A stretch of 64,000 bases of DNA, from NCBI RefSeq assembly GCF_014904695.1, contig NZ_JACXXN010000016.1:62001-126000 (forward strand), written 5' to 3'. The notes under the pieces are model-generated. The model did no database searches, had not been told where the DNA came from, and saw nothing but the letters and a program-made list of their open reading frames with translations. Each line of letters opens with the position of its first letter. Position 1 is the stretch's first letter. This document shows, one piece after another, positions 27,349-38,512 of this stretch. Position numbers and translations under genes: made by a program. Origin of the DNA: Nostoc sp. MG11 (GTDB lineage: Bacteria; Cyanobacteriota; Cyanobacteriia; Cyanobacteriales; Nostocaceae).

Positions 27349-28074
27349 ATGTCCGACTGCCAAGCAAAATCTGAAACCAGCTACTTAAGTGGATCTAATG
27401 GTAAGTGTTTAACAGCGTTTCAGCGGAAACTGCTGCTAGAGAGTTTGCACAAAAGTTTACCTGAATCTTACCGCCAACGAATTGAAATCATGTTGTTGGT
27501 AGATGAGGGAAAAACGCAAACGGAGATTTGTCAAACCTTGGGGTGTTGTGCAGCAACAGCACGACATTGGATGCATATAGCGCGGGCGGGGATGGCACAC
27601 CAATGGCAAGATTGTCCCATTGGTCGCCCTAAAGCTGTGAATGATCAGTATTTAGAGCGTTTGAAGGAATTAATTAACAGTAGTCCCCGCGAGCATGGCT
27701 ATGCTTTTCGGCGGTGGACAGCTAACTGGCTTGGGAAACATCTAGCAAAAGAATTTGAGATTGAGGTGAGCGATCGCCATATCAAGCGACTGCTCAAACA
27801 GATGGGATTATCCACCTTACCCAAACCCAGCAATTCTGAAGCAAACAGTAATGAGCAGGCTAAGGGTTCCAAAATTTTGATTGGTGATCTCAAATCGGCA
27901 GCTATTACAGATGATTCCGAATTTTTACCTATTGACTTTGCGAAATTAGGAAAACATTTAGACATTCATGGTGCAAAATACATCCGCTCAGGTGCTTTCT
28001 CTGCAACAGTTCAACAATACTCTGGGTTATTCTCTTTCGACAGAAGAATTTCAACAGTGTCTTCAACAAGTTAA
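27349..28074 (+). CDS. Transposase-like helix-turn-helix protein of the peptide-export operon
   Basis: A protein of about 241 residues. It holds two helix-turn-helix-like parts: ESYRQRIEIMLLVDEGKTQ then EICQTLGCCAATARHWMHIA, and after GRPKAV a winged part ending SDRHIKRLLKQMGLST. This resembles the N-terminal DNA-binding region of IS630/homeodomain-like transposases, but no DDE catalytic domain follows; the last 90 residues are unique. The ATG at 27349 is preferred to a TTG at 27286. Its last 107 bases overlap the exporter gene in another frame. Location suggests a regulator of the peptide-export operon; this is inference. Confidence 0.72.
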   Translation: MSDCQAKSETSYLSGSNGKCLTAFQRKLLLESLHKSLPESYRQRIEIMLLVDEGKTQTEICQTLGCCAATARHWMHIARAGMAHQWQDCPIGRPKAVNDQYLERLKELINSSPREHGYAFRRWTANWLGKHLAKEFEIEVSDRHIKRLLKQMGLSTLPKPSNSEANSNEQAKGSKILIGDLKSAAITDDSEFLPIDFAKLGKHLDIHGAKYIRSGAFSATVQQYSGLFSFDRRISTVSSTS

Positions 28075-30685
28075 ATTTATCAACCCAAAAGTCGGCAAGT
28101 TCTGGCAAGGTGATGCCCAACCAGGCATACATATTGCGATCGCTGGTAAGGTCAGGTTGCTAGATAGCGCCGATGAGTTAATCGCCACTTTGGAGGCAGG
28201 TGACTCATTTGGGGAGTTTACCTTGTTTAAGGAGGGTGAGTTTAAACCTTACGCTGCCAGGGCTTCAGTCAACTTGCAACTATGCTTTGTTCCGGGTGAG
28301 ACGTTGTGGCCACTGATGGCTAAATATCCCGAAATTCGGGAGCATTTGCAGGCTAAGGCGCTGTCTCGTAACCCCCAACAGCTGGACTCAGATCAACCTC
28401 CATCTGACTCAAAACTGCTGCATAAAACGGAGATTTTGTCAACGCCAGCAGTAGAGCCACGCCAGAAAAAGATTAGCAAAGCTTATTTTCCCAACTCCAC
28501 GCAGCGAGCGGGGCATTTATTACAGCGTGTGATTCGGCGCTATCCATTTTTTGCCCAACAGAGTGGATCGGATTGCGGTGCAGCTTGTTTAGTGATGGTG
28601 TCTCGCTATTGGGGGAAAAACTTTAGTGTAAATCGCCTGCGGGATATCGCCAATGTTGACCGCAATGGCTCCTCACTGCGGGGATTATCGGCGGCGGCGG
28701 AAAGTATTGGCTTTACCACGCGACCTGTGAAAGCGAGTCTTGACCAATTGGCGAAGCAAAAATTGCCTGCCATTGTCCACTGGGAAGGCAAGCATTACAT
28801 TGTAGTCTACGAAATTACTCCCAAGAGTGTGATTGTAGCTGACCCTGCTGTTGGTCAACGCACCCTCAGCCACCAGCAATTTAAAGCCAACTGGACTGGC
28901 TATACACTGCTGCTGCAACCCACCGCTTGGTTGAAGGATACCAAAGAGGCTACAACTCCCTTTTGGCAATTCTTTGAGTTGATCAAGCCTCACTCTTTAG
29001 TAATGCTAGAAGTGTTTGTCGCTTCTTTATTTATCCAGATATTTGGACTTGTTACACCTCTATTTACTCAGTTAATTTTAGACCGTGTAGTTGTGCAGCG
29101 TTCTGAACTAACCTTAACGGCGGTAGGGTTAGGATTGCTGATTTTTAGTTTATTTCGTGTGGCAATGACGGGGTTGCGGCAATATTTGTTAGACCACACG
29201 GCAAATAAGCTCGATTTAGCATTGATTGTGGGATTTATTCGCCATACCCTGCGGCTACCCTTGAGTTACTTTGAATCGCGTTATGTAGGGGATATTATCT
29301 CTCGTGTACAGGAAAACCGCAAAATTCAACGCTTCCTCTCCGGTGAGGCGTTATCCATCCTACTGGATTTAGTTACTGTCTTTATCTATTTAGGATTAAT
29401 GTTTTGGTACAGTTGGAAAATGGCGTTACTAGTATTAGTGATTGTACCGCCTTTTTTCCTACTAGCATTGATTGCCACACCTTTTTTACAAAAGATTTCT
29501 AGGGAAATCTTTAATGCTGTTGCTAATGAAAGTAGCTATCTGATTGAAGCACTTTCTGGCGTACGAACAGTTAAATCTACAGCAGTAGAACAGACAGTAC
29601 GTTGGCATTGGGAAGAGTTATTAAGTAAGGAAATAAAAACTAACTTTTCCGGGCAAATTATTAGCAATCGCCTACAAATATTCAGCAACACAATTGAAGC
29701 AGTGGTAACTACTATCTTGCTGTGGTTTGGGGCGTACCAAGTGATCCATAACCAGCTAACCATTGGGCAATTGGTAGCATTTAATATGTTGTTGGGAAAT
29801 ATTATTAGACCCTTCCAACGATTAACAGTTTTGTGGAATCAATTGCAAGAAGTGGTGATTGCAGTGGAACGCATTAATGATGTGTTGGATGCGGAACCAG
29901 AAGAAGATTTGCAGCATCAGGCGCGGCAATCTTTGCCACCCATTCAAGGTAACATTCGCTTTGACAACGTAACGTTCCGCTATCACCCTGAAAGCGATAT
30001 CAATGTTTTGGAAAATCTCAGTTTTGAAGTACACAGCGGGCAAATGGTCGCCTTGGTGGGACGGAGTGGTTCGGGAAAAACCACAATTTCTAAGCTGGTT
30101 TTGGGGTTATACTCCCCCACAGATGGCAAAGTGTTGATTGATGAGCAGGATATTACCAGTCTTTCGTTGCGTTCTCTACGCGAGCAGGTTGGGGTAGTTG
30201 ACCAAGATACCTTTTTGTTTGGCGGAACGATTCGGGAAAATATTAGCTTGGCACATCCTGGAGCAACTTTGGCAGAGATTATTGAGGCGGCGCGATTGGC
30301 GGGCGCTGATGAGTTTATTAAAAAGTTACCTATGGGTTATGAAACCCAGATCGGTGAAGGAGGGGGGATGTTGTCTGGAGGACAGCGACAAAGAATTGCG
30401 ATCGCAAAGGCGTTGTTAGGCAATCCCAAGCTGTTGATTTTGGATGAGGCGACTTCTCATCTGGATGCAGAGTCAGAAAGGATTATTCAGACGAATTTAA
30501 ACACAATTCTTAAGGACAGAACCACCTTGGTAATCGCCCATCGCCTTTCAACTGTGCGGAATGCAGATTTGATTTTGGTGCTGGATCGCGGCGTGTTGAT
30601 TGAGAGTGGGACTCACCAAGAGTTGATGGCGAAACGGGGACATTATTTTTATCTCAATCATCAGCAGATGGACGTTGCGGGGTGA
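27968..30685 (+). CDS. C39-peptidase ABC exporter with N-terminal cyclic-nucleotide-binding-like domain
   Basis: A 905-residue bifunctional exporter that cleaves double-glycine leader peptides and exports the core. Residues about 45-135 form a cNMP-binding-like fold (GIHIAIAGKVRLLDSADELI, GDSFGEFTLF). The C39 peptidase has C203 in QQSGSDCGAACLVMVSRYWG and H276 in GKHYIVVYE, then VIVADPAVG. The membrane domain spans about 345-620. The ATPase has GRSGSGKTT, LSGGQRQRIAIAKALL and LLILDEATSHLD. All catalytic residues are intact. The cNMP-like domain is typical of cyanobacterial members of this group. The natural cargo is probably the two Gly-Gly peptides encoded at 33293-33460 and 35529-35696. Confidence 0.93.
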   Translation: MVQNTSAQVLSLQQFNNTLGYSLSTEEFQQCLQQVKFINPKVGKFWQGDAQPGIHIAIAGKVRLLDSADELIATLEAGDSFGEFTLFKEGEFKPYAARASVNLQLCFVPGETLWPLMAKYPEIREHLQAKALSRNPQQLDSDQPPSDSKLLHKTEILSTPAVEPRQKKISKAYFPNSTQRAGHLLQRVIRRYPFFAQQSGSDCGAACLVMVSRYWGKNFSVNRLRDIANVDRNGSSLRGLSAAAESIGFTTRPVKASLDQLAKQKLPAIVHWEGKHYIVVYEITPKSVIVADPAVGQRTLSHQQFKANWTGYTLLLQPTAWLKDTKEATTPFWQFFELIKPHSLVMLEVFVASLFIQIFGLVTPLFTQLILDRVVVQRSELTLTAVGLGLLIFSLFRVAMTGLRQYLLDHTANKLDLALIVGFIRHTLRLPLSYFESRYVGDIISRVQENRKIQRFLSGEALSILLDLVTVFIYLGLMFWYSWKMALLVLVIVPPFFLLALIATPFLQKISREIFNAVANESSYLIEALSGVRTVKSTAVEQTVRWHWEELLSKEIKTNFSGQIISNRLQIFSNTIEAVVTTILLWFGAYQVIHNQLTIGQLVAFNMLLGNIIRPFQRLTVLWNQLQEVVIAVERINDVLDAEPEEDLQHQARQSLPPIQGNIRFDNVTFRYHPESDINVLENLSFEVHSGQMVALVGRSGSGKTTISKLVLGLYSPTDGKVLIDEQDITSLSLRSLREQVGVVDQDTFLFGGTIRENISLAHPGATLAEIIEAARLAGADEFIKKLPMGYETQIGEGGGMLSGGQRQRIAIAKALLGNPKLLILDEATSHLDAESERIIQTNLNTILKDRTTLVIAHRLSTVRNADLILVLDRGVLIESGTHQELMAKRGHYFYLNHQQMDVAG

Positions 30686-30764
30686 AACAAGACGACAAGA
30701 AAGAAGCTTTTCTTGTCTCTGCACTTCCAAAATCCCAAATCCCAAATTGATATCAGGAAACATC

Positions 30765-32288
30765 ATGCCAAACACATTGAATGGAAGGATTCAAACCCAA
30801 ATCCATGAGGTAGAACAGGGCGAGGAAATTTTAAAGGAGCAAACACCAGCTAAATCAACTGATGATTGGGCTGACGCAACCAAAGATTTACTTGATAGCT
30901 TACCCCAGGTTTGGACAAGGGGATTGCTATATTTTTTGGTGATGTCTGTGTCGATCATTTTACCTTGGGCGATGCTATCTAAGGTGGATGAAACGGGTAC
31001 AGCAAGAGGGCGACTTGAGCCAAAGGGAAAAACAGTTAGGCTGGATACTGCTGTGGCGGGTACTGTTGCCGAAATTCGTGTAAAAGAGGGTGATGCAGTT
31101 AAAGTTGGACAGACTTTATTGGTGTTGGAATCGGAATTAGTTAAGGCAGAAATGCGCCAGGCACAGGATAAGTTAGAGGGGCAATTAAATCGACTTTCTC
31201 AGTTAAATTCATCTAAAAGTCAGTTAGTTGTATCTTTGACAACGCAACAGCAACAAAATCAATCTCAACAGTTAGAAAAGCAGGCTCAAATTGATCAAGC
31301 ACGGCAGAATATGAATGCTCTGAAGAATTCTTATGACTTACAAAAAGACGAAAAATTAGCTCAAGTCAATCAGGCACGGCAAACTGTTGAGCATAATCAA
31401 ACTGCTAATAAGTTAGTAAACAGTAGTTTAGCAAGTACCGAGCGGGAAGTTGAACGCTATCGCAGTCTTTGGCAGTCAGGGGTTGTTCCAGAAATTAATG
31501 TTGTCGAGAAGCAAGATATAGCTAAAAACAAGCAACAGTTATACGAACAAAATCAGTCAGATATTCAGCAGGCTAAACTACGTTTGATAGAACAACAGAG
31601 TAGTTATGAGCGGACTATTCGGCAAGCAAATGCAGATATTGAGCAGGCACACTTGCGACTGAAAGAACAGGAAAGAAGTTATCAGACCTTAACTCGTTCC
31701 AGCAAACTAGCTCTGCTAAAAATCGACGAACAACAAAAGAATTTGGAGACAGAAATTACTATGCTTCAGGCAGAAATTGCTCAGAGTAAGAGTCAGATTG
31801 TCTCGTTAAAATTTCAGTTAGGACAACGAGAGTTAAGAGCCACCGTGAATGGTAGAGTGTTTCAGTTACCAATACAACGGGCTGGGTCTGTAGTGCAGCC
31901 TGGAGCAATGATTGCGGAGATTGCACCCCAAGGTTCGCCTTTAATAATTAGGGCGCAAATGGCAACAAATGAGAGTGGTTCTTTGCGAAGAGGGTTGCCA
32001 GTAAAGTTAAAGTTTGATGCTTATCCGTTTCAGGATTATGGAATTGTGGAAGGAGAATTGTTAGAGATTTCACCTACTACCATCGAGGTAGAAACCCCTA
32101 ATGGGAAGGTGGCAGCTTATGACTTGGAAATTGCCCTAAAACAAAATTGTATTCTCTCAGCTAATAAATGTATTGCTTTGCGTGCTGGGGATACGGCGAC
32201 AGCTGAGGTAATTGTGCGCCAACGTCGGATTATTGATTTTCTGCTTGACCCGTTTAAGCAGTTGCAACAGGGTGGGATGAGATTGTAA
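30765..32288 (+). CDS. HlyD-family membrane fusion (adaptor) protein
   Basis: The periplasmic adaptor that connects the inner-membrane ABC exporter to an outer-membrane channel. The chosen ATG (MPNTLNGRIQTQ) follows AGGAAA; an upstream TTG frame is not needed. One membrane helix lies at about residues 70-92 (LLYFLVMSVSIILPWAML). A split lipoyl domain (GTVAEIRVKEGDAVKVGQTL, and RATVNGRVFQLPIQRAGSVV) flanks a long glutamine-rich coiled coil at about 140-360. The beta-barrel end is RAGDTATAEVIVRQR. It is 79 bases downstream of the exporter, in the same operon. No TolC-like protein is in the window. Confidence 0.92.
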   Translation: MPNTLNGRIQTQIHEVEQGEEILKEQTPAKSTDDWADATKDLLDSLPQVWTRGLLYFLVMSVSIILPWAMLSKVDETGTARGRLEPKGKTVRLDTAVAGTVAEIRVKEGDAVKVGQTLLVLESELVKAEMRQAQDKLEGQLNRLSQLNSSKSQLVVSLTTQQQQNQSQQLEKQAQIDQARQNMNALKNSYDLQKDEKLAQVNQARQTVEHNQTANKLVNSSLASTEREVERYRSLWQSGVVPEINVVEKQDIAKNKQQLYEQNQSDIQQAKLRLIEQQSSYERTIRQANADIEQAHLRLKEQERSYQTLTRSSKLALLKIDEQQKNLETEITMLQAEIAQSKSQIVSLKFQLGQRELRATVNGRVFQLPIQRAGSVVQPGAMIAEIAPQGSPLIIRAQMATNESGSLRRGLPVKLKFDAYPFQDYGIVEGELLEISPTTIEVETPNGKVAAYDLEIALKQNCILSANKCIALRAGDTATAEVIVRQRRIIDFLLDPFKQLQQGGMRL

Positions 32289-32403: not shown

Positions 32404-33159
32404 ATGTCACAATCTATCACTATTACCAACGAAGATATTCTTAATCAAGTCAAGCTATCCTGTAAAATCCCTGAGTTCATTGAGGGGATTATTACTCGTA
32501 AAGTTATTGCAAATGCCGCAGCTGAGGCGGGTATCAAAGTAGAGACTGAGGAACTTCAAAAAGCAGCTGACCAAATCCGGTTAATGAACAAACTTAATAG
32601 TGCTGATGATACCTGGGCGTGGTTGGAAAAACATAGTCTTTGTATAGATGATTATGAAAAAATTGTCTACAGCACCGTCATTTCTGGAAAGTTAGCTGCT
32701 CATCTGTTTGCAGATAAAGTTGAACCCTATTTCTTTGAAAATCAACTAGATTATGCTGGTGTGGTCATGTATGAGGTTGTTCTGGATAATGAAGACTTGG
32801 CGATAGAACTCTTCTATGCCATTAAAGAAGGTGAGATGAGTTTTTATGATATTGCTCACAAATATATCCAGGATAAGGAATTACGCCGCAAAGGAGGTTA
32901 TCGGGGGATAATGCGCCGCAAAGATTTGAAACCAGAGATTTCAACAAATGTCTTTGCTGCCACGCCTCCCCAGGTTCTTAAACCCATCGTAGCCTCTAAA
33001 GGAGTATACCTAATTTTGGTTGAGGAAATTATTAAACCACAATTGGAGCCTATGCTGCGCTATCAAATTCTTGAGGATTTATTTACAGCCTGGATAAAGC
33101 AGCAAATTAAGCCAGTTGAAATTACTAAAAAACTCGACTTTAGCAGTCTGACAACTTAA
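32404..33159 (+). CDS. PpiC-type peptidylprolyl isomerase of the export operon
   Basis: A 251-residue protein with a SurA-like helical N-terminal part (IPEFIEGIITRKVIANAAAE, then AADQIRLMNKL) and a parvulin-like domain at about 130-220 (AIELFYAIKEGEMSFYDIAH, RRKGGYRGIMRRKDLKPEIS, VLKPIVASKGVYLILVEEI). There is no clear signal peptide. A strong AAGGAG site precedes the ATG. It follows the HlyD gene and closes the operon at a hairpin terminator. Such isomerases recur beside C39 exporters in Nostocales and may help the precursor or exporter fold. Substrate unknown. Confidence 0.85.
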   Translation: MSQSITITNEDILNQVKLSCKIPEFIEGIITRKVIANAAAEAGIKVETEELQKAADQIRLMNKLNSADDTWAWLEKHSLCIDDYEKIVYSTVISGKLAAHLFADKVEPYFFENQLDYAGVVMYEVVLDNEDLAIELFYAIKEGEMSFYDIAHKYIQDKELRRKGGYRGIMRRKDLKPEISTNVFAATPPQVLKPIVASKGVYLILVEEIIKPQLEPMLRYQILEDLFTAWIKQQIKPVEITKKLDFSSLTT

Positions 33160-33292: not shown

Positions 33293-33460
33293 CTACAGGA
33301 GTACTGCTATAACAATACTTACTAGAACAGGGTGAGCCTCAATAAAGTCAAGAATCTTACTAAAAAAACTACCACCTAACACATAGGCTAGCTCATCCTC
33401 TGTGAGTTCACAGAGAAAGCTTTCGGAAGGATTTAGGTCACAGACTGTAATACTAGCCAT
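33293..33460 (-). CDS. Double-glycine leader peptide precursor 1 (bacteriocin-like, no Cys in core)
   Basis: A 55-residue peptide found by reading the minus strand. The leader is MASITVCDLNPSESF, then LCELTEDELAYVLGG, with the L/V-x-x-x-L...E-L...V-L-G-G pattern cut by C39 peptidases (GG at 29-30). The core is 25 residues, starting SFFSKILDFIEAHP and ending with a hydrophobic helix (VLVSIVIAVLL). It has no cysteine and only two Ser, so it is probably not a lanthipeptide but a membrane-active bacteriocin-like peptide. A good AAGGAG site lies 11 bases upstream. It faces the exporter operon 134 bases away. Confidence 0.8.
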   Translation of the reverse strand: MASITVCDLNPSESFLCELTEDELAYVLGGSFFSKILDFIEAHPVLVSIVIAVLL

Positions 33461-34035: not shown

Positions 34036-34155
34036 TTGAGCCTAAAACTACTCATTGATGAAGACTCCCAGGCAAAACCTTTAGTTAATTTGTTACGGAG
34101 TGCTGTCACGATGTCAAATGGTCTATTACCTTTCCTTCTTTCTCACGTCTTCTGA
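34036..34155 (+). pseudogene. Truncated DUF5615-like toxin relic
   Basis: Overlapping the end of the antitoxin relic, a frame from TTG reads LSLKLLIDEDSQAKPLVNLL, then RSA, the N-terminal end of DUF5615 PIN-like toxins with the conserved LIDED. After RSA the similarity stops (a usual G-H-D-V is missing) and the frame ends at 34155. It is therefore a decayed toxin partner. Confidence 0.5.
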
Positions 34156-34775
34156 GAGGATTTCTTTTTGAACAGGACTCCAAATCCTAGTACAGAAACT
34201 AAACTGAGGATGGTGGAGGGTTCTGGAACGGTGACACCATCATAACGCCCCCCGACTAGCAGGGGCCCAGCATCTCCCACCTCTAGCGGAGCCGTTAAAT
34301 CTGGTTCAGTAAGAGTTTGAGCGACAAAACGCGTCCCCAAGAGAATAACTCCTCCTGTAAAAGTAACGCGTGGAGCTCGGAAAAGCTCTCCAGAGTCCTC
34401 CAAGATAAAGTTATTATCAACTTCAATATTGGCAAAAAGGTTAGATATGCCAATTTGCCCATCTCCATTAACATCTCCCCAGATTACCTCGTCATCAACT
34501 TCATCGAGTTCAGGAAATAAAAACAGCTCTATTGTAGTGATATCTAGTTCTGTACCCTCATTTAGAAAGTTTTGTTGACCGCTGATATCAGGTGCATTCC
34601 ATACAAGAACCGTACGAGGGGGATTCACGCCAATTCCGAAATTGCGGGAAGGGAGATTGCGATCAGGGGTTGTCAAAACGGGTTCGACTAATATAGCAGC
34701 AGCAGCTGGAGCTAAAGAAAGAAGACTGCTGACTGCCGCACTAATAACGAGCGTTCCTATATTTTTAGTATTCAT
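34143..34775 (-). CDS. PEP-CTERM sorting domain protein
   Basis: A 210-residue exported protein from MNTKNIGTLVISAA, with a signal peptide ending about SLAPAAA. The C terminus is the sorting signal: VPEPSTILSLVSVLGFGVLF followed by KKKSSQKT. The exosortase system removes this tail. The middle holds VIWGDVNGDGQIGISNLFAN, a dockerin-like DxNxDG calcium loop. The function is unknown. A long perfect hairpin upstream (34813-34848) separates it from the lanM relic. Confidence 0.85.
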   Translation of the reverse strand: MNTKNIGTLVISAAVSSLLSLAPAAAAILVEPVLTTPDRNLPSRNFGIGVNPPRTVLVWNAPDISGQQNFLNEGTELDITTIELFLFPELDEVDDEVIWGDVNGDGQIGISNLFANIEVDNNFILEDSGELFRAPRVTFTGGVILLGTRFVAQTLTEPDLTAPLEVGDAGPLLVGGRYDGVTVPEPSTILSLVSVLGFGVLFKKKSSQKT

Positions 34776-34812
34776 GACCTTAAAGAGAGACGTATAAAGC
34801 AACATTGTTAAC

Positions 34813-34848
34813 AATACTTAATTTTGATAACTGTCAAAATTAAGTATT
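34813..34848. terminator. Perfect 15-base inverted repeat after the lanM relic
   Basis: AATACTTAATTTTGA at 34813-34827 pairs perfectly with TCAAAATTAAGTATT at 34834-34848 around a six-base loop. It starts four bases beyond the lanM relic stop on the minus strand. Position suggests a terminator. The stem is AT-rich with no long T run, so another structured role is possible. Confidence 0.6.
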
Positions 34849-34851
34849 TCC

Positions 34852-35187
34852 TTATTCCCAAATAAGCACTGAAGGCAACAATTCTGGAGATACTAAGCGT
34901 AACAACTGATACCCTACTCCTGCTGTACCTCGCAAAAAACTAGGGTTAAAAAGCCAGTTAGGTAATACATCAAAAGTATATCCTCCGTTTTCTTTTGCTC
35001 TTTCCACTACCCATGCTGCCTTCTTCCTAGCAGTTTTTAGCCATTCCTGCTTACCAAGTTTTTGGAAAGCGACAACAATATAGTGGGACTTAGACAAAAA
35101 ATAGCCAGAAAAAACACTCAAATGTATATACAGAGAGACTTCGACATCGGTTTGCTTAGTTTCTTGATATATATGGGTTTCAAGCAT
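34852..35187 (-). pseudogene. C-terminal relic of a LanM-type lanthipeptide synthetase
   Basis: The frame ends LFNPSFLRGTAGVGYQLLRL, then VSPELLPSVLIWE and TAA. This is the characteristic C-terminal end of the LanC-like cyclase domain of class II synthetases (F-N-P-S-F...G-T-A-G-x-G-Y-x-L-L-R...LPSVLLWE). Similarity starts about QKLGKQEWLKTARKKAAWVV, near 35070; upstream codons do not continue the domain. The dehydratase domain and the zinc-binding Cys/His part are missing. About 1000 residues are therefore deleted, and the gene cannot work. Confidence 0.75.
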
Positions 35188-35225
35188 TTTTGAGTCTTTG
35201 GTGTATTTTCCCTGCCCTGTATGGG

Positions 35226-35249
35226 TTTGAGGCTTGTTTCTGCCTCAAA
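35226..35249. terminator. Hairpin upstream of the lanM relic
   Basis: TTTGAGGC at 35226-35233 pairs with GCCTCAAA at 35242-35249 around an eight-base loop. It lies 21 bases beyond the stop of the small unknown ORF at 35270. It may terminate transcription from the precursor 2 unit. Confidence 0.4.
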
Positions 35250-35269
35250 AATGTTTAAGTCCCGATAGT

Positions 35270-35416
35270 TCAGTGTTGAATAAATTCAGCATAGATTCTG
35301 CTTTTGAGACGTTCTTCAATGAGATTTTGGTCAAGCTTTTGTGGATTAAAATCTGGATCGAAAGAACGATTGAAGGATTCTAAAATAAAGATTATGTTGG
35401 TTGCTATAGTAGCCAT
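35270..35416 (-). CDS. Small ORF of unknown function in the lanthipeptide locus
   Basis: A 48-residue frame, MATIATNIIFILESF, then NRSFDPDFNPQKLDQN, then LIEERLKSRIYAEFIQH. It lies between precursor 2 and the lanM relic on the same strand. I do not recognise it. It could be the broken 5' part of a deleted gene, since the downstream lanM is also truncated, or a short independent gene. It has no Gly-Gly leader. Confidence 0.3.
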   Translation of the reverse strand: MATIATNIIFILESFNRSFDPDFNPQKLDQNLIEERLKSRIYAEFIQH

Positions 35417-35528
35417 TTGTGATAATTATACTACTGCCATTTACATTTTGTTTACAACGATTCCCCTACGAATTTACAAAGTATATACTAGGGGAATCAT
35501 TGCGCCTCAAATAGTGGTTAGTAAGTTA

Positions 35529-35696
35529 TTAAGCGTAAGCTACAGCTCCACATCCATGACAACTACTACATAGAGCCACCACTAAACCCCCTCTTATTTC
35601 AAGTTCGTTGTCTTCGAGGTCGTTGATGAAAGTTTCATAATCGACAAACAATTCTGCCCCAGCTAGTTTGATGTCATTAACTACGATGTTAGCCAT
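35529..35696 (-). CDS. Double-glycine leader precursor 2, cysteine-rich lanthipeptide-type
   Basis: A 55-residue peptide read from the minus strand. The leader runs MANIVVNDIKLAGAELF, then VDYETFINDLEDNELEIRGG, with GG at 36-37. It resembles leaders of class II lanthipeptides (NDIK.AG.ELF...F.NDL...E). The core is LVVALCSSCHGCGAVAYA, 18 residues, with three Cys and two Ser placed so that Ser-derived dehydroalanine could form thioether rings. GGAG lies 10 bases before ATG. Upstream are two copies of a 15-base motif also present before the kinase gene. The modifying enzyme could be the nearby kinase/HopA1 pair or, formerly, the deleted LanM. Confidence 0.82.
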   Translation of the reverse strand: MANIVVNDIKLAGAELFVDYETFINDLEDNELEIRGGLVVALCSSCHGCGAVAYA

Positions 35697-35829
35697 TTGA
35701 GTTTTTCTCCAATAATGAATTTGTGCTATTGACTAAGAATCAATTAGTAATTTTTGATTCTTATTGTAATCATAATTTTAATTAATTGAGTATGTCTATC
35801 TTTTTTTTAGTTTAGTGGTGTTCAAATAA

Positions 35830-35844
35830 AAACATTTATGTCAC
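35830..35844 (-). promoter_or_regulatory. Shared 15-base motif, copy 1, upstream of precursor 2
   Basis: On the minus strand this reads GTGACATAAATGTTT, 133 bases before the precursor 2 ATG. Its centre ACATAAATGT has inverted arms ACAT/ATGT. The same 15 bases occur at 36096-36110, and 14 of 15 at 38631-38645. It is a candidate operator. Confidence 0.5.
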
Positions 35845-35988
35845 TAATAGCCTTTTGGAGATTTCATTTGACTCAACAGAGATAGCATTTTATTTACTTA
35901 GTTTATGCAAATTTTATTTTCGGACTAGTATAATAATTTGATTATTATTTTCAAATATTGAAAACCTACAATAAAGTAGTGCGATACC

Positions 35989-36031
35989 TTCTCTGCGAGA
36001 CGCTACGCGAACGGTGGGCTACGCCTACGCC
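35989..36031. repeat. GC-rich short dispersed repeat
   Basis: TTCTCTGCGAGACGCTACGC followed by GAACGGTGGGCTACGCC and TACGCC, standing out from AT-rich surroundings. It is of the same type as the block at 20938-21055, which shares GCGTCTCGCAGAG on the opposite strand. Confidence 0.7.
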
Positions 36032-36095
36032 AATCAAGAATAGAACGAAAGGCAATTACAACAGAATTAGAGTCTGTTAAAAAGATTTAAAACTG

Positions 36096-36110
36096 AAACA
36101 TTTATGTCAC
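36096..36110 (-). promoter_or_regulatory. Shared 15-base motif, copy 2
   Basis: Identical to copy 1 (GTGACATAAATGTTT on the minus strand). It lies just beyond the terminator of the HopA1 gene and 400 bases before precursor 2, so it can only serve the precursor unit or be a repeat. Confidence 0.45.
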
Positions 36111-36146
36111 CATAAACTTTAAAATTGAGCAAAAAACATAACAAAA

Positions 36147-36172
36147 TCAGCCCAAGATAAATCTTGGACTGA
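36147..36172 (-). terminator. Rho-independent terminator of the kinase/HopA1 operon
   Basis: CCAAGAT (36152-36158) pairs with ATCTTGG (36161-36167), and outer TCAG/CTGA extends the stem across one mismatch. On the minus strand a T-rich stretch follows (TTTTGTTATGTTTTTT). It lies 32 bases beyond the HopA1 stop. Confidence 0.75.
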
Positions 36173-36203
36173 AATATAAACATTATCAACAAATGTATTC
36201 GTA

Positions 36204-37325
36204 TCAGTTGCCCAATTCTACTTGCCTGTAAATATCCTCAGAATTAGCATTCAAATAAACACGCTGCAAATCAATCCCCAAAGTGTAAAATTGCTCACAA
36301 ATAGCATGCATCCGCCCCTCAGTTGAATCATCCCCTTGCTGCCAACCTTCCAGTAACCCATTCGCCACAATCTGACAGCGATTCATGCCAAAACTCTCCT
36401 GTTCAGCAAACTTATGGTCTGGTTCTTCAGCTAACCCTAATCCTGGCGCTAGCTGCTTGGTAAATAAAGGAATTTCTGAGTTAAAATGCAATTGATGTTC
36501 TGTATAGACAATTTTGAAAACTTCCCTAACTATCTCATAGTCCCTTTTATCAAAATACAATACCCCTGAATCATGCCGACCGTATTCCTTGGGGTTGTAC
36601 AAAACCTTAAAACTAAAAGGTATTGCTAAATAATTCAAGTGCTGTGTCAAACTCTCCATAACCACAACAGCACCTTCAGGAGTTAAATTTAAATATATTC
36701 GCACAGTGATTGGCTGATATTTAGTATCCTCAATACGACCAAATCCCTGATTGCCAACTGCCATATAAAAGCCATTTTGGACTCTGTTTTTAGGCAAACG
36801 GATAGCTACTGAATCACCTATCAGAGTGACTTTTTCAACAAATTGAAGATGTTTATTTCGCTGAATATGCAGCCTTAAACCACCCTTAGTAACTACTAAA
36901 CTATCATCAGATTCTTCTTTAATAACAGACCAACCAGAATCAAAATAACCCTCTCCACAATTACTTTTATTCAATCGTTCATAAAATCCCACATCTATCC
37001 CCAGTAAAGTATTATTCTCCAAATCTAAAGGTAAATTATTTTCTTCTCCATCGAGTGCCAATAGACTTCGCATCGAGCCATTATAATAAATACCATAAAG
37101 AAAACTCCGCAATTGCAGACTCACGTATTTCTGTTGCATCTGGGTTGGCATCTTCTGAAAACGTTCAACTGCCTCAGATGGCAATTCCAAAGGTTTGTAA
37201 TCTGGATGGTGGATGGAAAAATCAGATTTTATCTCAATTTTTTGAACAATATCTTGCAGAACATCCAGTAATTGCCCTGTTAAACCAGTCTCTAGCTGAG
37301 TTTGAGGAGAATTTAATAATTGCAT
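36204..37325 (-). CDS. HopA1-family protein (class V lanthipeptide lyase-like)
   Basis: A 373-residue protein of the HopA1 effector-like family. In class V lanthipeptide synthesis (LxmY type) this fold removes phosphate from phospho-Ser/Thr to give dehydroamino acids. Features are PTQMQQKYVSLQLRSFLYGI and YYNG, then GFYERLNKSNCGEGYFDSGW, VRIYLNLTPEGAVVVMESLT, FSFKVLYNPKEYGRHDSGVL, and PLFTKQLAPGLGLAEEP near the end. The family call is by recognition of this pattern. It is 26 bases downstream of the APH-type kinase in one operon. The pairing is the main support for a peptide-dehydration role. It is not a type III effector in this context. Confidence 0.78.
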   Translation of the reverse strand: MQLLNSPQTQLETGLTGQLLDVLQDIVQKIEIKSDFSIHHPDYKPLELPSEAVERFQKMPTQMQQKYVSLQLRSFLYGIYYNGSMRSLLALDGEENNLPLDLENNTLLGIDVGFYERLNKSNCGEGYFDSGWSVIKEESDDSLVVTKGGLRLHIQRNKHLQFVEKVTLIGDSVAIRLPKNRVQNGFYMAVGNQGFGRIEDTKYQPITVRIYLNLTPEGAVVVMESLTQHLNYLAIPFSFKVLYNPKEYGRHDSGVLYFDKRDYEIVREVFKIVYTEHQLHFNSEIPLFTKQLAPGLGLAEEPDHKFAEQESFGMNRCQIVANGLLEGWQQGDDSTEGRMHAICEQFYTLGIDLQRVYLNANSEDIYRQVELGN

Positions 37326-37351
37326 AACTACTTTAGTAATAACAAAATGAT

Positions 37352-38512
37352 TTAAACAGCAGAACTACTTAGGTGAGTTAATTCAACAGCAGCAGCACCA
37401 AAAATTGTTGGCATCGATTGTACAGGACGGCTTAATAACGTCTTAGCAACCTGAAGCATAGCAATCCCCGTATTGCCAAAAGATTTTTGATATTGAATCA
37501 TTGCCTGAATCTGTTGAATTAAAGCAAAACCAGTAAATTGCACCACTCGTTGCAAGAAATCAGGGCGGTGTTCTAGAATTTCTGGAAAAGTGTTTAAATA
37601 AGCTTGGGTTAATCTACTAATTGAAGGCTGAAGTAGTTCTAAAGGTGTTATTGCCAAGCGTAGAGACTCTTCAATACTCAAAGAATTACTGATAACTAAG
37701 CTAGCAAGCCAGATTTGTACATAACTGCCGATGAGTGTTCCCAAATCAAAGGCTGGATCTCCCCAAGCCGAGCGTTCCCAATCAATTAGTCGGACAATAT
37801 TGTTACTAGAATCCTGCCAATCTTTATACAGGAGAATATTATTTAGTTTTAAATCATTGTGGGTGAGACAAGAGGGAATTACAGCATCACCCAGTTCTGC
37901 GATCGCTTGCCCTAAACTATCATACCGCTGATAAAGAGCAAAAAATCTTAACCCATCGTCAGGCACTAAACCAAAAATCTCTGGCCCAATCCGTTCCAAT
38001 CCCTGAATTAAATCCGATACTTGATCAGCCATTAGATTATCCTGATTAACAGAGAAGAAATCCTGATATTCTTTGCGATTAAAAGTATCACTATGGATAG
38101 TTGCAATGGCAGTGCCAATTGCCATTGCAATTTCTATAAAAAAGCTATTTTTCTTTGTGTAGAAATCTTTTAAATCTTGATAATCATCCAGGTATTTTAA
38201 GACAATAATTGAATTTTCTGCATCAAAATGCACCACATTTGGTAAAAATGAGCGATAGTGATTAAATTTGTTAAATTGCTGTAAGAAATCTTGAATTCGC
38301 CACTCCCTCAAAAACTCACCAGCAGTTTTTCCATCTTGATTGTGTCGTTCTTGCTTAACAAGAAGCTTACAACCATCTGTAAAAGTCAATAATAAATTAA
38401 AGTTTTTAGCTGCAACTGGTTCTATCTTGCTAGGAGATTGCTCAGACTGATTGCATAACCCCTGTTCAACTAAATAATCAAAAACATTATGGTAATTCAG
38501 GATTAATGTCAT
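37352..38512 (-). CDS. APH-fold phosphotransferase (class V lanthipeptide kinase-like)
   Basis: A 386-residue kinase of the aminoglycoside phosphotransferase/choline kinase fold. The Brenner motif CLTHNDLKLNNILL has H218, D220 and N225, and the metal-binding Asp is D244 in VRLIDWERSAWGDPAFDLG. An ATP-site lysine lies in GCKLLVKQERH near residue 55. All catalytic residues are present. Alone it could be an antibiotic or metabolite kinase. Coupled to HopA1 and close to a Cys-rich Gly-Gly precursor it matches the LxmK role, phosphorylating Ser/Thr of a lanthipeptide precursor. A 15-base motif lies 118 bases upstream. Confidence 0.82.
   Translation of the reverse strand: MTLILNYHNVFDYLVEQGLCNQSEQSPSKIEPVAAKNFNLLLTFTDGCKLLVKQERHNQDGKTAGEFLREWRIQDFLQQFNKFNHYRSFLPNVVHFDAENSIIVLKYLDDYQDLKDFYTKKNSFFIEIAMAIGTAIATIHSDTFNRKEYQDFFSVNQDNLMADQVSDLIQGLERIGPEIFGLVPDDGLRFFALYQRYDSLGQAIAELGDAVIPSCLTHNDLKLNNILLYKDWQDSSNNIVRLIDWERSAWGDPAFDLGTLIGSYVQIWLASLVISNSLSIEESLRLAITPLELLQPSISRLTQAYLNTFPEILEHRPDFLQRVVQFTGFALIQQIQAMIQYQKSFGNTGIAMLQVAKTLLSRPVQSMPTIFGAAAVELTHLSSSAV

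What the first reader, a model, noticed from the sequence alone, without database searches (positions are those of the whole stretch)
35529..38512. Class V-like lanthipeptide locus: APH kinase, HopA1 lyase and a Cys-rich double-glycine precursor
An APH-fold kinase with intact H218/D220/N225/D244 is followed 26 bases later by a HopA1-family protein. From established knowledge, this kinase plus HopA1 pairing (LxmK/LxmY) performs Ser/Thr phosphorylation and elimination in class V lanthipeptides such as lexapeptide. Downstream on the same strand is an unannotated 55-residue precursor with a Gly-Gly leader and core LVVALCSSCHGCGAVAYA. Described class V systems are mainly actinobacterial; a cyanobacterial version with a C39-type leader and C39 exporter in the same neighbourhood looks unusual. 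No cyclase is visible, so ring closure may be spontaneous or supplied elsewhere.
Basis: partly seen in the sequence, partly recalled or inferred. Interest (0 to 1): 0.88.

Follow-up and report, generated by a model that had tools for sequence, protein, structure and literature searches.

The report
Cyanobacterial kinase–lyase peptide-modifying locus
A cyanobacterium carries a gene set that probably dehydrates and exports a small cysteine-rich peptide, using the same two-enzyme chemistry as some Streptomyces antibiotics; the general kind was already predicted in print.

Summary
In detail: kinase, HopA1-family protein and 55-residue Gly-Gly precursor lie where stated. The kinase matches the LxmK model nearly full length; the HopA1 model's only PDB fold matches at E<=0.001 are LxmY; LanY catalytic residues are present. 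Correction: a Cys-less 111-residue remnant of a class II LanM lies downstream, in ~600 bp absent from Komarekiella.

That a cyanobacterial version is unusual is not supported: Eyles 2021 described this kind (Family 1A, 183 clusters), and 190 of 192 sampled genomes of the window's GTDB family carry HopA1.

'Lanthipeptide' is unproven: no intact LanC-type domain was found in the genome, the core does not end in Cys, and 29 of 44 related cores lack Cys. Best reading: Ser dehydration, C39 cleavage, export, and uncatalysed thioether closure or none.

Relatives gave two things my paper searches did not show: a widespread sister lineage whose lyase lacks the catalytic Lys (31 Gln, 3 Glu, 1 His), with no leader peptide found nearby and usually beside phylloquinone genes; and degenerate kinase/lyase pairs in 7 of 192 genomes, close to Cys-containing cores (8 of 8 versus 14 of 48 elsewhere), candidate cyclases.

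The parts
37352..38512 (-). LanK-like Ser/Thr kinase (386 aa), APH fold
   Evidence: NF038156 LxmK 89.2 bits over 27-369, under the equivalog cut-off of 315; APH 38.4 bits; H218/D220/N225/D244
36204..37325 (-). LanY-like HopA1-family phospho-Ser/Thr lyase (373 aa)
   Evidence: PF17914 202.7 bits; LxmY 9dk1 by sequence E 7.4e-6 and by fold E 2.9e-10; H40/R209/K240/R250/Y257
35529..35696 (-). Precursor peptide, 37-residue leader ending GG plus 18-residue core LVVALCSSCHGCGAVAYA
   Evidence: leader family; syntenic peptide in Komarekiella with core LMIAICSSCCGTHTWA
34852..35187 (-). Remnant of a class II LanM 3' end (111 aa, no Cys), almost wholly within a ~600 bp stretch (about 34860-35461) absent from Komarekiella; probably not part of the working system
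   Evidence: TIGR03897 868-931/932; PF05147 282-349/350; DNA alignment with relative; no Cys
33293..33460 (-). Second Gly-Gly leader peptide, hydrophobic core without Cys; possible other substrate of the exporter
32404..33159 (+). PpiC/SurA-like protein, like TIGR04500 putative peptide maturation family
   Evidence: 61.3 bits, under its cut-off of 180; found in many related loci
30675..32288 (+). HlyD-family secretion accessory protein (true start perhaps about 30765)
   Evidence: PF13437 61.6 bits; start judged from the translation
27968..30685 (+). C39 peptidase-ABC exporter with an N-terminal cNMP-binding domain
   Evidence: PF03412, PF00664, PF00005, PF00027

Best explanation
A RiPP locus of the cyanobacterial HopA1/phosphotransferase kind. 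The leader recruits the kinase-lyase complex; the kinase phosphorylates Ser7 and Ser8 of the core and the HopA1 lyase eliminates phosphate to give dehydroalanines; the C39-ABC/HlyD exporter cuts after GG and secretes the peptide. One or more of Cys6/9/12 then probably add to a dehydroalanine (Ser8 to Cys12 has i,i+4 spacing) without a dedicated cyclase. Shown: genes, homology, catalytic residues, recurring linkage. Inferred: dehydration and export of this peptide (about 0.75). Weakly inferred: thioether rings (about 0.4).
For: Near full-length match of the kinase to the LxmK model. The only Foldseek PDB hits at E<=0.001 are the three LxmY chains (model pLDDT 67.7). H40/R209/K240/R250/Y257 stand where CaoY has H57/R187/K219/R229/Y236 (CaoY residues from PMC9486802 passages; the pairing K240/R250/Y257 rests on identical spacing, R209 on spacing within one residue, H40 on position only). 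All 18 of 117 sampled Cyanobacteriota genomes that have the leader also have HopA1; none of the 93 without HopA1 has it (taken as the same draw; Fisher 2e-16). Lys-type HopA1 has a leader-model match within 8 kb in 34 of 35 cases and 12 of 13 further ones. CSSC is kept between window and Komarekiella cores. Lan closure without a cyclase, moderately sped up by kinase-lyase, is reported for rosin (PMC12291118, abstract and passages).
Against: No chemistry was tested. 29 of 44 unique cores lack Cys. [quoted passage not shown] The kinase is far below NCBI's LxmK cut-off (89 versus 315 bits) and no NCBIfam model names the HopA1 protein. The fold matches have low TM-scores (0.33-0.41). That 44 of 44 cores hold Ser/Thr is not remarkable at 17% Ser/Thr and their lengths. 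The phylum counts are species, not independent events, and one of the 24 HopA1 matches (G252) is a fragment.
Confidence: 0.7

Rival explanations
1. Dehydrated but not cyclised: the product is a linear dehydroalanine peptide, or its cysteines form a disulfide. The pair is a general dehydratase of the family and rings are not the point.
For: No intact LanC-type domain in the genome; 29 of 44 cores lack Cys; two relatives in this genome have Thr at nearly every second core residue and no Cys (L012).
Against: This core has 3 Cys and 2 Ser in 18 residues; dehydroalanine near thiols tends to react (established chemistry, not tested here).
Confidence: 0.35
2. The pair does not modify this precursor; it is an ordinary C39-exported peptide with a disulfide, and the enzymes act on other precursors in trans.
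For: No direct test ties enzymes to this peptide; leader peptides also occur in this genome with no pair within the 16 kb fetched (L061-L063).
Against: Same order of kinase, HopA1 and this precursor in Komarekiella; leader/HopA1 co-occurrence.
Confidence: 0.12
3. A decaying locus: an earlier cyclase was lost, and only the LanM remnant or nothing remains.
For: LanM 3' remnant beside the precursor; two congeners (L058, L059) carry a second, degenerate kinase/lyase pair in this place.
Against: The remnant lies in ~600 bp absent from Komarekiella, so it looks inserted (a deletion there is not excluded); no trace of the degenerate pair in the window; kinase and lyase are intact.
Confidence: 0.15

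Closest known systems
Family 1A HopA1-associated peptides (Eyles 2021, PMC8153245, passages read)
   Same: Cyanobacterial, HopA1 plus phosphotransferase, conserved double-glycine leader, variable cores
   Different: Nothing decisive seen; the sequence logos in the supplement were not seen. This core is Cys/Ser-rich, which the family as a whole is not
Class Va lanthipeptides (lexapeptide LxmK/LxmY, cacaoidin CaoK/CaoY)
   Same: Homologous kinase and lyase with matching catalytic residues
   Different: Gly-Gly leader and C39 exporter, core not ending in Cys so no AviCys, no LanX seen beside it
Class Vb lanthipeptides (LanK/LanY plus LanC; as described in PMC12291118 passages; the original paper PMC9621591 was not held)
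   Same: Kinase and lyase types
   Different: No intact LanC found
Class II LanM lanthipeptides
   Same: LanM remnant, Gly-Gly leader
   Different: Remnant only; no LanM cyclase domain found in the genome

Membership tests
Class V lanthipeptide (LanK + LanY) | Stand-alone LanK-type kinase (PF01636) | tested here: met
   PF01636 38.4 bits; NF038156 89.2 bits, under the equivalog cut-off
Class V lanthipeptide (LanK + LanY) | Stand-alone LanY lyase (PF17914) with catalytic Arg and Lys | tested here: met
Class V lanthipeptide (LanK + LanY) | Lanthionine in the product | not testable with these tools
   needs mass spectrometry
Class Va | C-terminal Cys for AviCys | tested here: not met
   core ends AVAYA
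Class Va | LanX and LanD in the cluster | tested here: inconclusive
   no kinase like the degenerate one of L058 in the genome at E<=1e-120 and no remnant of such a pair downstream of the HopA1 gene; LanX proper and LanD were not searched for
Class Vb | LanC cyclase | tested here: not met
   only two C-terminal PF05147 fragments in the whole genome
Eyles Family 1A | Cyanobacterial Gly-Gly precursor beside HopA1 and phosphotransferase | tested here: met
Eyles Family 1A | Match to the published leader logo | not tested
   supplement not available
Class II (LanM) | Intact LanM with zinc ligands | tested here: not met
   111-aa fragment with no Cys

The most novel reading that the evidence does not exclude
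In heterocystous cyanobacteria the LanK/LanY pair has split three ways: an active dehydratase for hypervariable Gly-Gly peptides (the window); a widespread pair of intact kinase and Lys-less pseudo-lyase, usually beside phylloquinone genes and without a precursor, hence with a non-RiPP role; and degenerate kinase/lyase pairs that serve as LanX-like cyclases for Cys cores. The window precursor is a Cys-core member that closes its rings without that cyclase.
Probability: 0.27. Interest if true: 0.78.

Novelty: new member of a known kind. Interest (0 to 1): 0.5.

Why it matters
A 2025 review (PMC12328550, passages) says class V lanthipeptides have so far been found only in actinobacteria, while Eyles 2021 counted 183 cyanobacterial clusters of this kind by genome mining. 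This window offers a compact, testable case with a Cys/Ser-rich precursor. The sister lineage that lost the catalytic Lys raises the question of what such a kinase/lyase pair does outside peptide biosynthesis, and the degenerate pairs near Cys cores are candidate cyclases.

Tried and rejected
Rejected: a heme-binding reading of CSSCH (CXXCH), because the Komarekiella core has CSSCC. Rejected: LanC-type catalysis by the remnant. Rejected: a remnant of the degenerate pair in the window (tblastn best E 0.30). Uninformative: 0 of 44 cores lack Ser/Thr. PDB search with the LanM remnant gave only chance-level hits. Rfam on the window: 0 matches. A small-ORF comparison around the menaquinone-adjacent pair listed many ORFs alike between four genomes of one genus, mostly overlapping genes; a conserved intergenic one (L010:1123-1323, minus strand) was not analysed.

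Limits. Lineage samples were not random: the Lys set comes from a search with the window protein, this genome and its genus, plus hand-picked places; the Lys-less set from L010-like proteins in 24 genomes picked for having one (22) or two (2) HopA1 copies, plus four of the genus. The 20 places were picked by hand from the list (and G084); one, L167, is the same locus as L017. The leader model used was broadened and also matches the window's second peptide and some divergent Gly-Gly peptides. Loci differ in size (about 5-21 kb), so less flank was searched at Lys-less loci; Men genes were counted anywhere in a locus. Two Lys loci lack a leader: L027 (contig ends about 1.1 kb after HopA1) and L163. 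Rows left out of the first 63: L057 (same genome as L020), L023 (same as L059), L035 (partial HopA1), L014 and L061-L063 (no HopA1). The tree includes the Lys column; that leaves it out but is a quick tree. Profile A1 misses divergent leaders: G099 scored none, yet L116 from it has four relaxed leader ORFs. G013's only HopA1 is Lys-type beside leaders, so the Lys-less lineage is not universal. The 8/8 count depends on a 2.5 kb cut-off: L148 holds two more leader peptides about 5 kb from its degenerate pair without Cys. One of the 14 (L023) is the same peptide as that beside the L059 degenerate pair, placed with the others by removal of duplicates. The seven degenerate kinases were found at E<=1e-120, so others may be missed; two of the seven matches (G032, G177) showed one in-frame stop in the tool's alignment. 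Labels: MenE, MenC, MenA, isochorismate synthase and aldo/keto reductase were confirmed on L010 and L012 and carried to other loci by tblastn; the thioesterase is YbgC/FadM-like, under its cut-offs, and its link to the pathway is recalled.

Full report
What is there. The kinase, HopA1 protein and precursor are at the stated coordinates, in one direction, with 26 bases between kinase and HopA1 and 507 between HopA1 and the precursor. On the other strand, converging, are a PpiC-like protein (TIGR04500-like), HlyD and a C39-ABC exporter. Two things were missed: a second Gly-Gly peptide (33293-33460) and a LanM C-terminal remnant (34852-35187). DNA alignment with the Komarekiella locus shows about 600 bp, 34860-35461, present only in the window and holding nearly all of the remnant. 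Apart from a second short LanC-like fragment elsewhere, no LanC-type domain was found in the genome. A PEP-CTERM protein (34143-34814) lies between and is kept in Komarekiella.

Are the enzymes what they seem? The kinase matches NCBI's LxmK model over nearly its full length (89.2 bits, cut-off 315) and has H218/D220/N225/D244. The HopA1 protein matches LxmY by sequence (9dk1, E 7.4e-6; identified as LxmKY in PMC12141560 passages). A model from 16 homologues (pLDDT 67.7) finds only the three LxmY chains at E<=0.001, then HopA1 effectors at E about 0.008 and OspF/SpvC weaker; TM-scores are low. Residues equivalent to those tested in CaoY (PMC9486802 passages) are present: K240, R250, Y257 by identical spacing, R209 nearly so, H40 by position.

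Is the pair tied to the peptide? Of 22 loci from named genomes, 13 hold kinase, HopA1, leader peptide and PpiC-HlyD-C39 together, among them Nostoc, Cylindrospermum, Microcystis, Arthrospira, Trichodesmium and Okeania; others are cut by contig ends or differ. Among 117 sampled Cyanobacteriota genomes the leader occurs in 18 and HopA1 in 24; all 18 are among the 24 (Fisher 2e-16). Leaders are conserved, cores hypervariable: of 44 unique cores, 15 have Cys and 14 of those have Ser/Thr up to 8 residues before a Cys. The window core is one of the Cys-rich ones; its Komarekiella counterpart keeps CSSC.

How novel is it? Eyles 2021 (passages) describes Family 1A: 570 peptides in 183 BGCs, exclusive to Cyanobacteria, with double-glycine leaders and cores without conserved Ser, Thr or Cys, and notes that 20% of HopA1 proteins lie near or are fused to LanC. 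The 2022 cacaoidin paper (section 7) calls cyanobacterial candidates type-B. HopA1 is in 190 of 192 sampled genomes of the window's GTDB family, six copies in this one. So the window is a new member of a predicted kind. A 2025 review (passages) still lists only actinobacterial class V products.

Ring closure. The core cannot make AviCys (no C-terminal Cys). Rosin forms its lanthionine without a cyclase, moderately sped up by RosK-RosY, while RosX, a kinase-like protein lacking catalytic residues, closes the AviMeCys ring (PMC12291118, abstract and passages). I therefore favour uncatalysed closure or none.

A sister lineage. In a first set of 63 HopA1 proteins, 35 have the catalytic Lys and 28 do not (27 Gln, 1 His). 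Of the 35, 34 have a leader-model match within 8 kb and none has MenE or the thioesterase in its locus; of the 28, none has a leader and 22 have MenE or the thioesterase. A second set of 20 places, fetched afterwards as a check, gave 13 Lys (12 with leader, none with Men genes; one of the 12 repeats L017) and 7 without Lys (4 Gln, 3 Glu; none with leader, 6 with Men genes). On a quick tree of all 83 made without that column, Lys and Lys-less proteins are separated by one branch (SH-aLRT 99; earlier 100/99 for the 63). Partner kinases keep the catalytic residues in 25 of 27 Gln loci of the first set; one has Asn for D244 and one stretch holds no kinase. The lineage was found in 24 of 24 selected genomes (23 Gln, 1 His), 17 of which show no leader at E<=0.1, but not in G013, whose one HopA1 is Lys-type. 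The neighbours are o-succinylbenzoate-CoA ligase, o-succinylbenzoate synthase, the cyanobacterial/plant-type MenA phytyltransferase and isochorismate synthase. The searches listed no paper that by title or abstract describes this lineage; I did not read all of those papers.

Degenerate pairs. Seven of 192 family genomes have a second kinase/lyase pair. Its kinase reads KHNKD (six) or KHNNN (one) in place of KHDND, and its lyase has lost several of the five residues. All 8 unique cores within 2.5 kb contain Cys, against 14 of 48 others (p = 2e-4). By analogy to RosX I propose, without a test, that these pairs are cyclases. The window genome has none at that cut-off, though the leaders most like the window's, after its Komarekiella counterpart, include those beside such pairs.

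Noticed in passing
L010:1422-3989 (own genome C32), L064-L066, L109-L115, L117-L133, L161, L162, L164-L166, L168, L169: Kinase plus HopA1 lineage with the catalytic Lys replaced by Gln, Glu or His, no leader peptide found nearby, usually beside menaquinone/phylloquinone genes.
   Followed up: yes
L058:11158-13426, L059:3384-5641, L145-L149: Second, degenerate kinase/lyase pair close to Cys-containing precursors; candidate LanX-like cyclase.
   Followed up: partly
L012:7161-11172: Two precursors with Thr at nearly every second core residue, no Cys, with an aldo/keto reductase gene (PF00248, 32.5 bits) overlapping the HopA1 gene by 4 bases. If Thr were dehydrated and then reduced, an alternating D/L peptide could result; similar reductase also in L013, L030, L059, L134, L136.
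   Followed up: no
L061:8515-8736, L062:7890-8111, L063:8032-8253: Nearly identical leader peptides on three contigs of this genome with no kinase/HopA1 pair within the 16 kb fetched.
   Followed up: no
L014:9294-9392 (own genome C160): A second LanC-like C-terminal fragment, 64% identical to the window remnant over 33 residues.
   Followed up: partly
window 36204-38512: In the HopA1 tree the window groups with Cylindrospermum, while its kinase is most like Komarekiella's (87% identity); possible recombination within the operon.
   Followed up: no
G202:C1:4504783-4505313: HopA1 domain inside an 834-residue open frame in a genome of another family of the class, perhaps a fusion.
   Followed up: no
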